64,000 nucleotides of DNA, taken from contig NZ_PSZM01000040.1 in NCBI RefSeq assembly GCF_002964975.1, positions 124,001 through 188,000 of the forward strand, written 5' to 3'. The DNA is from Apibacter adventoris. GTDB lineage: Bacteria; Bacteroidota; Bacteroidia; Flavobacteriales; Weeksellaceae. The notes beneath the pieces were generated by a model. The model saw only the letters and a program-made list of their open reading frames with translations, was not told the DNA's origin and searched no databases. Position 1 is the stretch's first letter. Each line of letters opens with the position of its first letter. Below, piece after piece: positions 52,861 to 62,203 of this stretch. Position numbers and translations under genes: made by a program.

Positions 52861-52946
52861 AGAGAGGTGCTCGAGTGGTTGAAGAGGCTACCCTGGAAAG
52901 GTAGTATACGGTAACCGTATCGAGGGTTCGAATCCCTTCCTCTCTG
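52861..52946 (+). tRNA. tRNA-Ser (GGA anticodon)
   Basis: The sequence folds into a class II cloverleaf: acceptor stem AGAGAGG / CCTCTCT with discriminator G, anticodon stem CTACC / GGTAG around loop CTGGAAA (anticodon GGA, serine codons UCC/UCU), a long variable arm (TACGG / CCGTA) and a T-arm with TTCGAAT. CCA is not encoded. A hairpin terminator follows at once. An integrase gene 218 bp downstream suggests this tRNA 3' end is the attachment site of an integrative element. Confidence 0.95.
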
Positions 52947-52948
52947 CT

Positions 52949-52985
52949 AAAGACTTATAAATATTTATTTATAAGTCTTTTTTGA
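52949..52985 (+). terminator. Terminator of tRNA-Ser
   Basis: A perfect 13-bp stem (AAAGACTTATAAA / TTTATAAGTCTTT) with a 6-nt loop and following T-run starts 3 bp after the tRNA discriminator base. Confidence 0.88.
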
Positions 52986-53164: not shown

Positions 53165-54370
53165 ATGGAAATTAATAAACTTAATATATTATTTGTAATC
53201 GCAAAAAGTAGGATAAATAAAATGGGTAATGCTCCATTATTTTGTCGGTTAACTTACCAGGAGAAAAGGAAACAATTTTCAACTGGTTTATTTATAAATC
53301 CCAAATATTGGCAAAATACAAAACAACAAGCACACCCTCCTAGTGAACATAATAAGTTTATAAATTCACAATTAAGTCTGATTAAAAATAATATTAATCA
53401 GGCTTTTTTATTTCTACAACTTCAAAGTGAGAATTTTACAGTAGAACACATATATAAACAATATGCAGGAGAAACTCAAAACGAAGATAAATCTCTGATG
53501 GATATTTTCAATTATCATAATAATCGAATGAAAAGTCTTGTGGGTATTGAAGCTTCAATTAATAGTTGGGAAAGGTATCATAACACTCATAATCATATCA
53601 AGGATTTTATTTGGCATAAATTTAAGAAAAAGGATTATTCATTGAGGGAGCTAAATCTAAATTTCATTATGGATTTTGAATATTACTTACAAACAGAAAA
53701 AGGATTTATGGCTACTACTATTTTTAAAAGTATTCAACGGTTCAGGAGGGTTATTAGAGTCGCTGTAGCAATGGATTATTTGCTTAAAGACCCTTTTTTA
53801 CTATATAGAGCTAAAAATCCTAAAAAGCAGATTATTTACCTTACACTTGAAGAATTATCCAAATTAGAAAATTATACTTTCTCACAAGCCAGATTACAGC
53901 AGGTAGCCGATATGTTTATATTCTGTTGCTATACAGGATTAGCATACCAGGAAATGAATAATTTAACTCAAAATAATATAATAGAGCATGATAATGTTTT
54001 ATGGATTGATATGTATAGGCAGAAAACACAAAAACAATTCCTTGCTCCTTTACTTCCAAAAGCTGTTCATATAATAAAAAAATATCAAAATGAACAAAAA
54101 TTATTACCCATAATTAGTAATCAGAAGTTTAACTCTTATTTAAAAGAAATTGCAGATATAGTAGGAATTAATAAAAACCTTACTCATCATATTGCCAGAA
54201 AAACTTTTGCTACTACTGTATTACTTTATAACGATGTTCCTATGGAAATTGTAAGTGAACTTCTAGGACATTCAAAAATTACTATTACCCAAGAACATTA
54301 TGCAAAAGTAGTCCAGAAGAAAGTAAGTGAGCATATTCAAAAATTGAGTAAAAAACTATCTCAAAAGTAA
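53165..54370 (+). CDS. Bacteroidota-type tyrosine recombinase/integrase
   Basis: This 401-residue site-specific integrase has an N-terminal arm-DNA-binding domain (about 1-95), a SAM-like core-binding domain (about 105-205) and a C-terminal catalytic domain. Visible catalytic residues: Lys287 region, H-H-I-A-R (His342, Arg345), L-G-H (His369) and H-Y-A (Tyr379 nucleophile). The first arginine, normally in T-G-L-R, is Ala260 (T-G-L-A), as known for Bacteroides CTnDOT IntDOT, which also lacks it. Its position just after tRNA-Ser fits an element that integrates at the tRNA 3' end. Confidence 0.93.
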   Translation: MEINKLNILFVIAKSRINKMGNAPLFCRLTYQEKRKQFSTGLFINPKYWQNTKQQAHPPSEHNKFINSQLSLIKNNINQAFLFLQLQSENFTVEHIYKQYAGETQNEDKSLMDIFNYHNNRMKSLVGIEASINSWERYHNTHNHIKDFIWHKFKKKDYSLRELNLNFIMDFEYYLQTEKGFMATTIFKSIQRFRRVIRVAVAMDYLLKDPFLLYRAKNPKKQIIYLTLEELSKLENYTFSQARLQQVADMFIFCCYTGLAYQEMNNLTQNNIIEHDNVLWIDMYRQKTQKQFLAPLLPKAVHIIKKYQNEQKLLPIISNQKFNSYLKEIADIVGINKNLTHHIARKTFATTVLLYNDVPMEIVSELLGHSKITITQEHYAKVVQKKVSEHIQKLSKKLSQK

Positions 54371-59569: not shown

Positions 59570-60064
59570 CTATTTATCTTCTTTTTGTAATATCAATATT
59601 TTACTTAGAATAATCAGACATCGCCATATAGTTAATACAATAATTACTAATCCAAAAGCATTATAAAAAAAGAAAAATTTTCTGTAATCTAAACCAAAAA
59701 ACAGTTTTATAAAAAATCCTATTGTAGCAATAAATACTATAGATTTTATACAATTTTTTAAGTGCTTTACTGTTTCATAATAAAAATCCGTAGAAAAAAA
59801 ATTATTAAATGTAGAATTTACTTCTGTGGTAGGTTTGTTATTAGATGTATCTTTAAATGTAATAAGAACTGTAAGTATAGTAAGTATAAAGCCTGCCATT
59901 GTTAAGGATATATTTGTCAGGTCTCCTGTTAAATCATATGAATCTTGTGTAGTTGGAAGATTAAATAAATTATTCTTATATAAAATAAATAACAAAACAG
60001 TTATTAATATAGCAATCAAGTAATCTAATAAAACAGGTTTTCTAAAATAAAAGTCAAGTATCAT
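59570..60064 (-). CDS. Four-helix membrane protein, RexB-like
   Basis: This 164-residue protein has four predicted membrane helices (about 13-29, 51-70, 105-124, 131-159), a loop of about 35 polar residues between helices 2 and 3, and a short charged C-terminus. Phage lambda RexB (144 residues, four helices) has the same plan. By memory, helix 2 (S-L-T-M-A-G-F-I-L-T-I-L) and the end after helix 4 line up with RexB without gross gaps. Its ATG overlaps the TGA of the upstream 319-residue gene, implying fixed stoichiometry. RexB depolarises the membrane when activated by RexA; such a role here is a hypothesis. KwaA of the Kiwa system is another four-helix partner protein to compare. Confidence 0.55.
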   Translation of the reverse strand: MILDFYFRKPVLLDYLIAILITVLLFILYKNNLFNLPTTQDSYDLTGDLTNISLTMAGFILTILTVLITFKDTSNNKPTTEVNSTFNNFFSTDFYYETVKHLKNCIKSIVFIATIGFFIKLFFGLDYRKFFFFYNAFGLVIIVLTIWRCLIILSKILILQKEDK

Positions 60065-61020
60065 AACGACTCTATAAAGGTATCTAAATCATTTTTAACC
60101 AAATCATACCACTTTTTAGATGAAGTTATTTTTTTTACATCTATTTCTAAAATAATTTCTTTTTTTCCACTTAGCAAATTAAATAATTCTTCGTTCCCTT
60201 CTTTATCTTCATATTTAAACATAAAGGATTTAAATGCGTCTACATCTAGTCTATTTCCTTTAATTTTATTAAGCAAATCTAAAACCATATTATTAGCATT
60301 AACATTTAATGCTTTACTTTGTATACTTCCTCCTGGAGATTGAAAATATGCTTCTATTCTTAAAAACTTTGGATTTAAAATATTACTTAAATTTCGCATT
60401 CCAGAAAAATATTTATTATGTACATCATTTGTAAGTTTATTTAAATCATTAGGAGCAATTTTAATATCAATATTAAGTACGTTTTTTAATTTACTTAATG
60501 TTTCATCAATAGGAGCTTCTAAAAAAGCAGTCACTTCTGTAGCTTTACTTTCTTTTAGAACTTTATGTGCAACATTTCTAAAATAATATTCTATATCTGA
60601 AATTCTTGGTCCATGATGGTTGTATTCACAACATATTATTACTGTATTCTTATTATAGTCAATAAAAAAATGGGTTTCTTCTGCTATACTACCTTTTGTT
60701 GCCTCAGTAATGGGAATTAACTTGAATCCTTCTCTTGGTTTTATTAATGGAACTTTTCCACTTCTTAATAATGCCATTGAACACCTAATTCGCCTTTCTT
60801 TAGGTAAGATAACAGCACGGTTCATAAATATTTCTCTTCTGTTATTTTGTCTTGCTTCATACTTATCAATCAAGTGTCCTTGATGCTCTTTGAGTAATTT
60901 ATTTGAAATATAAGTTATTATATTAAGAACAATATCCTTACTACTCAAATTTATTCCTTTTAAAGGGGTAAATTTTAAAGAAAATAACTGATACCTAATT
61001 TCTGTCAGATTATCATCCAT
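60061..61020 (-). CDS. Soluble partner of the membrane protein, RexA-like candidate
   Basis: No characterised family was recognised with confidence. The protein has 319 residues, no signal or membrane helix, a basic N-terminal third (about 55-100, many Arg/Lys) and a middle region with H-F-F-I-D-Y then G-P-R-I-S-D (137-142), E-V-T-A-F-L-E-A-P near 162-170 and V-L-N-I-D-I-K-I-A-P near 181-190. Lambda RexA (279 residues), as I remember it, has a similar succession: a hydrophobic strand, G-P-x-x-S-D, then L-x-I-V-I-K-P. With the coupled four-helix gene downstream, the pair has the RexA-RexB gene order. If homologous, it would be the DNA-binding sensor. DUF4868 (KwaB) is the main alternative. Confidence 0.5.
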   Translation of the reverse strand: MDDNLTEIRYQLFSLKFTPLKGINLSSKDIVLNIITYISNKLLKEHQGHLIDKYEARQNNRREIFMNRAVILPKERRIRCSMALLRSGKVPLIKPREGFKLIPITEATKGSIAEETHFFIDYNKNTVIICCEYNHHGPRISDIEYYFRNVAHKVLKESKATEVTAFLEAPIDETLSKLKNVLNIDIKIAPNDLNKLTNDVHNKYFSGMRNLSNILNPKFLRIEAYFQSPGGSIQSKALNVNANNMVLDLLNKIKGNRLDVDAFKSFMFKYEDKEGNEELFNLLSGKKEIILEIDVKKITSSKKWYDLVKNDLDTFIESL

Positions 61021-61689: not shown

Positions 61690-61751
61690 AGTACGTCCAT
61701 TTTTTGTATTCTTAGTTATATAAGTTCTGCAAAAAGTGGACGTACTTTTTA
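61690..61751 (+). terminator. Long hairpin between the unknown gene and radC-like gene
   Basis: AGTACGTCCATTTTTTG pairs with CAAAAAGTGGACGTACT (17 bp, one wobble) around a 23-nt loop, followed by TTTTT. It begins 6 bp after the 61684 stop and ends 17 bp before the radC-like ATG, so it could be a terminator or an attenuator. Confidence 0.7.
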
Positions 61752-61762
61752 TTTGTTTTAAT

Positions 61763-62203
61763 ATGAAAGTATCAGAAATCAAAGTCTACTATACCAATAA
61801 AAACCAGGAGAAAATAAAAATAGAAAATAGTCATCAATTATATGATTTAGCCATATCCATTTGGAATATGAAAACTATTGAATTGCAGGAAGAGGTAAAA
61901 GTATTGTATTTGAATAGAAACAATCTTGTATTAGGATATTATAGTTTAGCTAAAGGTGGGATTTCTGCTTGTTGTGTAGATATAAGGCTTATACTTAGTA
62001 CCGCTTTAAAAGCGAATGCTTCTGCTATTGTAGTCATACATAATCATCATCCTAGTTCTAATCCAAATCCTTCTAAAAGTGATTGGAATTTAACAGAGAA
62101 GATACAAAATGCCTGTAAATTACTGGATTTAGTATTTGTAGACCATTTGGTACTAACCAAAGAAACTTATTTTAGTTTTGCTGATAAGGAGTTCTTCTTA
62201 TAA
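61763..62203 (+). CDS. RadC-family JAB/MPN-domain protein
   Basis: From the ATG at 61763 this is a 146-residue protein of the short RadC type found on mobile elements. The JAMM metal site is visible: Glu44 region, H-N-H-H-P-S-S (His93, His95) and S-K-S-D (Asp107). There is an extra His in the motif compared with the usual H-N-H-P-S-G. RadC-like proteins are linked to anti-restriction or DNA repair in elements, but no activity is proven. A start at 61736 would lie inside the hairpin and is not preferred. Confidence 0.85.
   Translation: MKVSEIKVYYTNKNQEKIKIENSHQLYDLAISIWNMKTIELQEEVKVLYLNRNNLVLGYYSLAKGGISACCVDIRLILSTALKANASAIVVIHNHHPSSNPNPSKSDWNLTEKIQNACKLLDLVFVDHLVLTKETYFSFADKEFFL

What the first reader, a model, noticed from the sequence alone, without database searches (positions are those of the whole stretch)
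59570..61020. RexAB-like two-gene module in a Bacteroidota integrative element: candidate new anti-phage system
Seen: a soluble 319-residue protein gene overlaps by ATGA a 164-residue four-helix membrane protein gene, in that order, as an isolated minus-strand unit in a mobile element. Known: lambda RexA (279 residues, sensor) and RexB (144 residues, four-helix channel) are encoded in this order and abort infection. From memory the soluble proteins share a G-P-x-x-S-D element followed by I-x-I-K-P-like strands, and the membrane proteins share helix spacing. Homology is an inference; the Kiwa pair (KwaA four-helix, KwaB DUF4868) is the main competitor, and a new family is the third option.
Basis: partly seen in the sequence, partly recalled or inferred. 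Interest (0 to 1): 0.8.

Follow-up and report, generated by a model that had tools for sequence, protein, structure and literature searches.

The report
A distant RexAB-like antiviral gene pair
Two overlapping genes on a small mobile DNA element in a Bacteroidota bacterium encode a protein with the fold of lambda's phage sensor RexA and a four-helix membrane partner; the pair recurs as a unit in Bacteroidota genomes and phages and, more distantly, in an archaeal virus, so it is probably an unrecognised branch of the RexAB virus-exclusion systems.

Summary
In detail: a 319-aa soluble-protein gene (60061-61020, -) overlaps by ATGA a 164-aa four-helix membrane-protein gene (59570-60064, -), inside a 12.3-kb element bounded by a tRNA-Ser repeat. 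No Pfam, NCBIfam, PHROG or PADLOC model claims either. They are strict partners: paired at all 23 other genomic places and 3 viral contigs found. The AlphaFold2 model of the soluble protein matches lambda RexA first among 350,542 PDB chains (Foldseek E 1.4e-5; VIA Z 10.5). An archaeal provirus pair, GahPV1 gp18/gp19, bridges in sequence: gp18 joins this family (P 9e-9) and RexA (P 5e-4; above all 168 background proteins). The membrane protein shares four-helix topology and gene position with RexB but no detectable sequence. At 4 of 11 loci checked, known defence genes (Qat, type III RM, Hachiman, MADS) lie nearby. Best reading: a RexAB-type abortive-infection pair, a RexA-like sensor triggering a membrane effector. 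RexA kinship is well supported; RexB homology and anti-phage activity are inferred. New variant of a known kind; a 2026 paper counted only five RexAB-like systems.

The parts
60061..61020 (-). RexA-fold soluble protein, 319 aa (proposed infection sensor/trigger)
   Evidence: ORF; AF2 pLDDT 80.4; Foldseek 8twq rank 1 E 1.4e-5; VIA Z 10.5; family alignment; transitive profile link
59570..60064 (-). Four-helix membrane protein, 164 aa (proposed RexB-like effector)
   Evidence: ORF; four hydrophobic segments; helices; always next to the soluble gene; GahPV1 gp19 related (E 1.6e-4, P 1.2e-3); RexB homology not detected
60061..60064 (-). ATGA stop/start overlap joining the two genes
60595..60612 (-). 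Codons for GPRISD (residues 137-142); GPR is invariant in 12 aligned sequences including the archaeal virus protein
52878..52984 (+). Left attachment repeat (3' part of tRNA-Ser plus 37 nt); right copy at window-numbering 65154-65261, outside the window
53165..54370 (+). Tyrosine recombinase (integrase) of the carrier element
   Evidence: Pfam PF00589/PF13102/PF17293
54423..59157 (+). Element core, three genes: DEAD/ResIII helicase, AAA_24 ATPase, DUF3871
61736..62203 (+). RadC-like JAB domain gene of the element; relatives also near the pair in L016 and L066

Best explanation
The two genes are a RexAB-type virus-exclusion module carried as cargo by mobile elements and prophages of Bacteroidota. 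The first gene makes a basic, RexA-fold cytoplasmic protein (shown by fold and profile evidence) that probably dimerises and binds DNA, and senses a replication or protein signal of an invading phage (inferred from RexA). When triggered it activates the co-translated four-helix membrane protein (inferred), which permeabilises or depolarises the inner membrane, stops growth and aborts the infection (inferred from lambda RexB, Sbash gp31, CarolAnn gp43 and RexBpp). The strict pairing and translational coupling would keep the stoichiometry that RexAB systems are reported to need.
For: Fold: lambda RexA (8twq) is the top PDB match, E 1.4e-5, prob 1.00, VIA Z 10.5 over 149 residues, above Iml3 8.0, CENP-N 7.4 and RdgC 5.8; RdgC and Iml3 are named as RexA's structural relatives in PMC11077077 (passages). 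Sequence: GahPV1 gp18 belongs to the family (hmmsearch E 1.1e-11 in 1484 ORFs; hhalign P 9e-9, 0 of 60 decoys) and aligns with RexA over 171-176 columns (P 4.9e-4, 0 of 60 decoys; score 35.0 against a maximum of 24.4 in 168 background proteins); 18 of 26 family members also score above the 95th percentile of that background. Pairing: 23 of 23 places, same 6 of 201 genomes and 7 places from either profile, mirrored divergence r 0.76, 0 of 2000 permutations. Order soluble then four-helix membrane protein as in lambda and CarolAnn. Setting: 6 of 20 neighbour proteins scanned singly, in 4 of 11 loci, match PADLOC strongly: QatA/QatC, type III Mod and Res, HamB, mad3; two pairs follow phage tail and lysis-type genes (read by eye). 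Spread: 77% identity to a Pseudochryseolinea protein while only the window's own genome among 296 of its order has it. Mechanism of relatives: PMC12894663 (abstract, passages, Discussion), PMC6426596, PMC6426606 (passages).
Against: Direct profile comparison with RexA is not significant (P 0.04-0.085; 4 of 60 decoys reach it), though the published relatives RexA and the Sbash/CarolAnn group also fail this test (P 0.71). The global Foldseek superposition is poor (TM 0.28, rmsd 16.7), so domain placement differs or is mispredicted; pTM is 0.68. Curated RexA models do not hit. The membrane family shows no sequence tie to RexB. RdgC and CENP-N/Iml3 share the fold, so fold alone does not prove exclusion function. 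14 of the 20 neighbours and 7 of the 11 loci scanned singly gave no defence match, the commonest Pfam families among 139 neighbours are housekeeping types, and no base rate was run. No activity data exist.
Confidence: 0.72

Rival explanations
1. Butters-type inversion: the soluble RexA-fold protein is itself the antiviral effector and the membrane protein holds it inactive until infection.
For: Mycobacteriophage Butters gp30/gp31 is reported to work this way with the same architecture (PMC7542560 passages; PMC12894663 Discussion). Strict pairing fits equally well. The membrane family's conserved central segment (F86, F89-F90, Y95, T98, K103-N104, K107-S108 invariant in 17) could be a docking site.
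Against: Of the five systems counted in PMC12894663 (Discussion), only Butters is described as reversed; the other four use the membrane protein as effector. I recognised no enzymatic motif in the soluble family (by eye).
Confidence: 0.14
2. A maintenance or regulatory pair of mobile elements: the RexA/RdgC-fold protein modulates recombination or the lysogeny switch and is tethered to the membrane, without defence as its main role.
For: RdgC is in the fold list (Z 5.8). Lambda RexA biases the CI/Cro switch independently of RexB, and its DNA binding does not track exclusion (PMC11077077 passages). The window pair rides on an integrative element and two others on phage-like contigs.
Against: The pair is not tied to one element type: relatives of the window element's integrase, helicase, AAA_24 and DUF3871 were found at none of 19 other loci within the flanks held. 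Some pairs lie near named defence genes.
Confidence: 0.1
3. An unrelated family (Kiwa-like or wholly new) that resembles RexAB only in layout.
For: No curated family matches; KwaA is recalled as a four-helix protein paired with a soluble partner.
Against: RexA is the best fold of the whole PDB library and gp18 bridges in sequence. No Kiwa model matched in PADLOC up to E 10 and DUF4868 is not among the 13 Pfam families touched by 16 members; I did not confirm that PADLOC holds Kiwa models. Kiwa's order is recalled as membrane gene first.
Confidence: 0.04

Closest known systems
Bacteriophage lambda RexA/RexB
   Same: RexA fold as best structural match; soluble gene first, then a four-helix membrane protein of similar size; TM1-TM2 offset of 41 residues in both; GPxxSD element; basic soluble protein, pI 9.1 and 8.6
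   Different: 7-11% identity in the structural alignments; no match to Pfam or PADLOC RexA/RexB models; not next to a cI repressor; 4-nt overlap instead of a 15-nt gap; longer TM2-TM3 stretch in the membrane protein; no RexB sequence similarity
Sbash gp30/gp31 and CarolAnn gp44/gp43
   Same: Soluble gene then four-TM gene, overlapping, prophage-borne, reported defence (PMC6426596, PMC6426606 passages)
   Different: No detectable sequence similarity at this profile depth (P 0.98); soluble partner 370-372 aa
Pseudomonas putida RexABpp (PP_5643-5644)
   Same: Cryptic-prophage-borne DNA binder of RexA type with a four-TM effector causing membrane damage (PMC12894663 abstract, passages, Discussion)
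   Different: Its sequences were not at hand and were not compared
Geoglobus ahangari pleomorphic virus 1 gp18/gp19
   Same: Related in both genes, same order, 17-nt overlap
   Different: Archaeal virus; annotated hypothetical; 18% identity to the phage-contig member L068
RdgC and Iml3/CENP-N
   Same: Share the RexA fold class (PMC11077077 passages for RdgC and Iml3)
   Different: Lower Z (5.8-8.0); other roles; no four-helix partner known to me

Membership tests
RexA (fold family) | RexA two-domain fold | tested here: met
   Top PDB match 8twq, E 1.4e-5, Z 10.5, 149 aligned, rmsd 4.0; the global superposition is poor (TM 0.28)
RexA (sequence family) | Significant sequence kinship to lambda RexA | tested here: inconclusive
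   Direct P 0.04-0.085; significant only through GahPV1 gp18 (P 9e-9, then P 4.9e-4) and as a shift of 18 of 26 members above the 95th percentile of 168 background proteins
Pfam PF15969 / PADLOC RexA | Match to the curated model | tested here: not met
   No match for the window protein (Pfam to E 1; PADLOC to E 10); RexA not among the 13 Pfam families touched by 16 members; lambda RexA hits both models
RexA | Non-specific DNA binding and dimerisation | not testable with these tools
   pI 9.1 is compatible only
RexB | Four transmembrane helices, encoded directly after rexA | tested here: met
RexB (Pfam PF15968 / PADLOC RexB / sequence kinship) | Sequence kinship to RexB | tested here: not met
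   No model match; hhalign P 0.054 with 3 of 60 decoys; 0 of 27 members above the background 95th percentile
RexAB system | Both genes needed for phage exclusion with membrane damage | not testable with these tools
   Needs phage challenge
DUF4747 (named for Sbash gp30, CarolAnn gp44 and RexA in PMC6426596/PMC6426606) | Match to PF15931 | tested here: inconclusive
   1 of 16 members at E 0.12
Kiwa (KwaA/KwaB) | KwaB/DUF4868 and KwaA models | tested here: inconclusive
   No match; presence of Kiwa models in PADLOC not confirmed and no Kiwa sequences compared

The most novel reading that the evidence does not exclude
RexAB-type pairs are an old, broadly distributed class of membrane-linked virus exclusion spanning bacteria and archaea. 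A Bacteroidota branch travels in islands and prophages and near Qat, type III RM, Hachiman and MADS genes, and an archaeal pleolipovirus carries the same pair, so Benzer's lambda exclusion is one twig of a system used by archaeal viruses too.
Probability: 0.5. Interest if true: 0.75.

Novelty: new variant of a known kind. Interest (0 to 1): 0.62.

Why it matters
RexAB is among the oldest examples of abortive infection, yet its trigger is still unknown, and a 2026 paper (PMC12894663, Discussion) counts only five described systems, from phages or prophages of Escherichia, Mycobacterium, Gordonia and Pseudomonas. A branch that present Pfam and PADLOC RexA/RexB models miss, found at 23 other Bacteroidota genomic places, on three viral contigs and in an archaeal provirus, supplies the diversity (28-93% identity among 26 soluble proteins) needed to map which RexA surface senses infection and which membrane-protein residues gate, and would add a system to defence annotation in a major bacterial phylum.

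Tried and rejected
Family scans of both proteins with Pfam, NCBIfam, PHROGs and PADLOC gave nothing usable; the best were a 14.6-bit PADLOC type IIG restriction match (E 0.0015) and CTV_P6 (E 0.07) for the membrane protein, taken as noise. PDB sequence searches gave only noise. The own-genus weak hit (E 0.0037, 64 residues, L012) and nine hits of E 0.008-0.07 were set aside as noise; a 16-sequence profile over a phylum draw of 395 found only the window and G485. tblastn of the window protein in plasmids and phages and the first viral scans gave nothing; the 16-sequence profile found three viral contigs and only the same three again. A viral scan with the membrane profile found none, although those three contigs carry the gene, so its patterns miss some. 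Searches with gp18 found no further relative in phages, plasmids or viral contigs. Foldseek for the membrane model had no match with E <= 0.001. Sbash/CarolAnn profiles tie neither to this family nor to lambda RexA at this depth. An empty-site comparison in the genus failed: the downstream flank gene passed the cut-off in none of the other 8 genomes. PF15931 over the own genome gave nothing, and its control genomes were silent too, so uninformative. dN/dS was mostly saturated. L029 was left out of the soluble alignments because its gene is split into two ORFs. Kiwa sequences were not fetched. The VIA list does not exclude folds that it lacks; no Kiwa entry is among its 50 rows.

Not-in-print check: no paper on a Bacteroidota or archaeal RexAB was seen in the listings of searches (20 of 81, 2 of 2, 20 of 121, 10 of 1,311 and 19 of 19 listed; open-licence PMC papers only).

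Full report
What is there. Both genes exist as described: 319 aa (60061-61020, -) and 164 aa (59570-60064, -), joined by ATGA. They lie in an element that starts at tRNA-Ser (52861-52947), whose 3' part plus 37 nt is repeated 12.3 kb downstream (107 against 108 bp, one 1-nt indel). The element carries a tyrosine recombinase, DEAD helicase, AAA_24, DUF3871 and RadC; no conjugation gene appeared among its proteins scanned, and a few short ORFs were not scanned. The pair faces against these genes, as cargo.

The pair is a unit. Of 296 genomes drawn from its order only the window's own has the soluble gene, and a phylum draw of 395 held one clear relative (53% identity). A two-sequence alignment then found 16 named loci (Flavobacterium, Pseudochryseolinea, Pedobacter, Mucilaginibacter, Allomuricauda, Formosa, Winogradskyella, Marinoscillum and others) and 7 places in 6 of 201 genomes of the order of that relative, itself included. 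At all 23 distinct places the membrane gene follows the soluble gene (L002 and L031 are one place). The membrane profile searched alone found the same 6 of 201 genomes and the same 7 places. Leaving out the centre genome, two independent sets of 5 in 200 would coincide about once in 2.5e9 (my arithmetic, ignoring relatedness). Spacing is -32 to +3 nt in 26 measured pairs, -4 nt in 17. Divergence of the two proteins is correlated (r 0.76, 0 of 2000 permutations); the 26 soluble proteins are distinct (highest identity 92.5%, lowest 28.4%). In L029 the soluble gene is split into two ORFs.

Known families. Neither protein matches Pfam, NCBIfam, PHROGs or PADLOC in any usable way, nor do the family members in Pfam (16 and 17 scanned); one of 16 touches DUF4747 at E 0.12. 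Lambda RexA and RexB do hit Pfam and PADLOC models, so such models exist and miss this branch. DUF4747 is the domain that the Sbash and CarolAnn papers name for their soluble partners and for RexA (passages).

Fold. AlphaFold2 on 16 sequences gave mean pLDDT 80.4, pTM 0.68. Foldseek ranks lambda RexA first of 350,542 chains, E 1.4e-5, probability 1.00; its two chains are the only matches under 1e-3. The overall superposition is poor (TM 0.28), which could reflect the closed crystal and open modelled arrangements reported for RexA (PMC11077077 passages). VIA-align gives Z 10.5 (149 residues, 4.0 A); next come Iml3 8.0, CENP-N 7.4 and RdgC 5.8. The RexA paper names RdgC and Iml3 among RexA's structural relatives. 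Against viral models the best matches are unnamed tailed-phage proteins (five with E <= 0.001, best 1.2e-14). The membrane model (pLDDT 82.2) has no PDB match with E <= 0.001.

Sequence bridge. tblastn with L021's protein brought up, at E 0.2, a gene of Geoglobus ahangari pleomorphic virus 1, an archaeal virus detected as a provirus (PMC10919331 passages). Its gp18 (313 aa) is followed by gp19 (179 aa), overlapping 17 nt. Profiles of the family score gp18 at E 1.1e-11 and gp19 at E 1.6e-4 among 1484 ORFs. In hhalign with 60 column-shuffled decoys each: family-gp18 P 9e-9 (0 decoys reach it); gp18-RexA P 4.9e-4 (0); membrane family-gp19 P 1.2e-3 (0); family-RexA directly P 0.08 (4); membrane family-RexB P 0.054 (3); membrane family-Sbash/CarolAnn P 0.28 (3); family-Sbash/CarolAnn group P 0.98 (60); and, as control, RexA-Sbash/CarolAnn group P 0.71 (43), so the test is weak even for accepted relatives. 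Thirteen comparisons were made. Against 168 background proteins without phmmer-detectable kinship, the RexA profile ranks gp18 first (35.0; background mean 14.4, maximum 24.4), and 18 of 26 family members exceed the 95th percentile; against 31 background membrane proteins the RexB profile shows nothing (0 of 27), while the membrane-family profile ranks gp19 first (27.6, background maximum 20.2). So RexA kinship is supported through the archaeal intermediate; RexB kinship is not detected. Searches with gp18 itself found no third group.

Motifs. GPR is invariant across 12 aligned sequences including gp18. GPRxSD occurs in 23 of 26 family members and GPTTSD at residue 109 of lambda RexA, in the region that hhalign aligns.

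Setting. Of 20 neighbour proteins scanned singly, from 11 loci, 6 match PADLOC with strong scores, in 4 loci: L020 QatA and QatC, 5.4 to 1.3 kb upstream with two further ORFs between; L019 type III Res directly upstream and Mod about 5 kb upstream; L018 mad3 directly upstream; L016 HamB 2.6 kb away on the other strand (the second ten were chosen partly after seeing the tally). The other 14 proteins and 7 loci gave none. A tally of 139 of 141 neighbour ORFs adds type I RM, mad2 and PADLOC candidate systems (first 25 of 238 families shown), while the commonest Pfam families there are housekeeping types (first 25 of 87 shown). No base rate was run. Relatives of the window element's integrase, helicase, AAA_24 and DUF3871 occur at none of 19 other loci in the flanks held; RadC occurs at 2 and HTH relatives at 3, so the pair moves between element types. 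In viral contigs L067 and L068 the pair follows tail and lysis-type genes (read by eye). The L016 protein, from Pseudochryseolinea, is 77% identical to the window's, pointing to transfer.

How it works. From the architecture and the studied relatives: lambda RexAB, Sbash and CarolAnn are held to use a soluble partner to trigger a four-TM membrane effector; RexABpp adds direct evidence of membrane damage on overexpressing RexApp (PMC12894663 abstract and Discussion). I infer the same here. Shown: fold, pairing, topology, mobile setting. Inferred: DNA binding, trigger, channel activity, abortion of infection. The Butters system reverses the roles (PMC7542560 passages) and is the main rival.

Novelty. 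PMC12894663 states that five RexAB-like systems had been described. The listings of searches of the held library showed none in Bacteroidota or archaea. I call it a new variant of a known kind: RexA-type by fold and transitive sequence, outside present RexA/RexB models, with a membrane partner of its own sequence family.

Noticed in passing
L065:2692-4156 (BK065157, GahPV1 gp18/gp19): Archaeal pleolipovirus pair related to both genes, overlapping 17 nt, annotated hypothetical; the sequence bridge to lambda RexA.
   Followed up: yes
L067:4986-6457 and L068:4992-6457: Viral contigs with the pair right after tail, endolysin-like and lipoprotein-like genes (by eye), a likely prophage cargo site.
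   Followed up: partly
L058:101-1382 (E. coli plasmid pGSH8M-2-5, 3.3 kb): Small E. coli plasmids carry a divergent RexA-like gene (26.8%) followed by a 145-aa RexB-like gene (27%), both annotated hypothetical.
   Followed up: partly
L029:9989-10947: In Marinoscillum the soluble gene is split into two ORFs while the membrane gene is intact.
   Followed up: no
L020:4551-9865: A qat-type cluster (QatA and QatC matched; two further ORFs after them) runs up to the pair on the same strand, perhaps one transcript.
   Followed up: partly
G708, loci L032 and L037: One genome carries two divergent copies of the pair.
   Followed up: no
window:59204-59494: A 96-aa TTG-start minus-strand ORF downstream of the pair; no Pfam match and no relative at the 19 loci searched.
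   Followed up: partly
BFVD A0A8S5S8L2, A0A8S5MSR5, A0A8S5QGP5, A0A8S5PCY0, A0A6J5Q1Z2: Unnamed tailed-phage proteins with a similar fold (Foldseek E 1e-14 to 2e-6), perhaps further RexA-type proteins.
   Followed up: no
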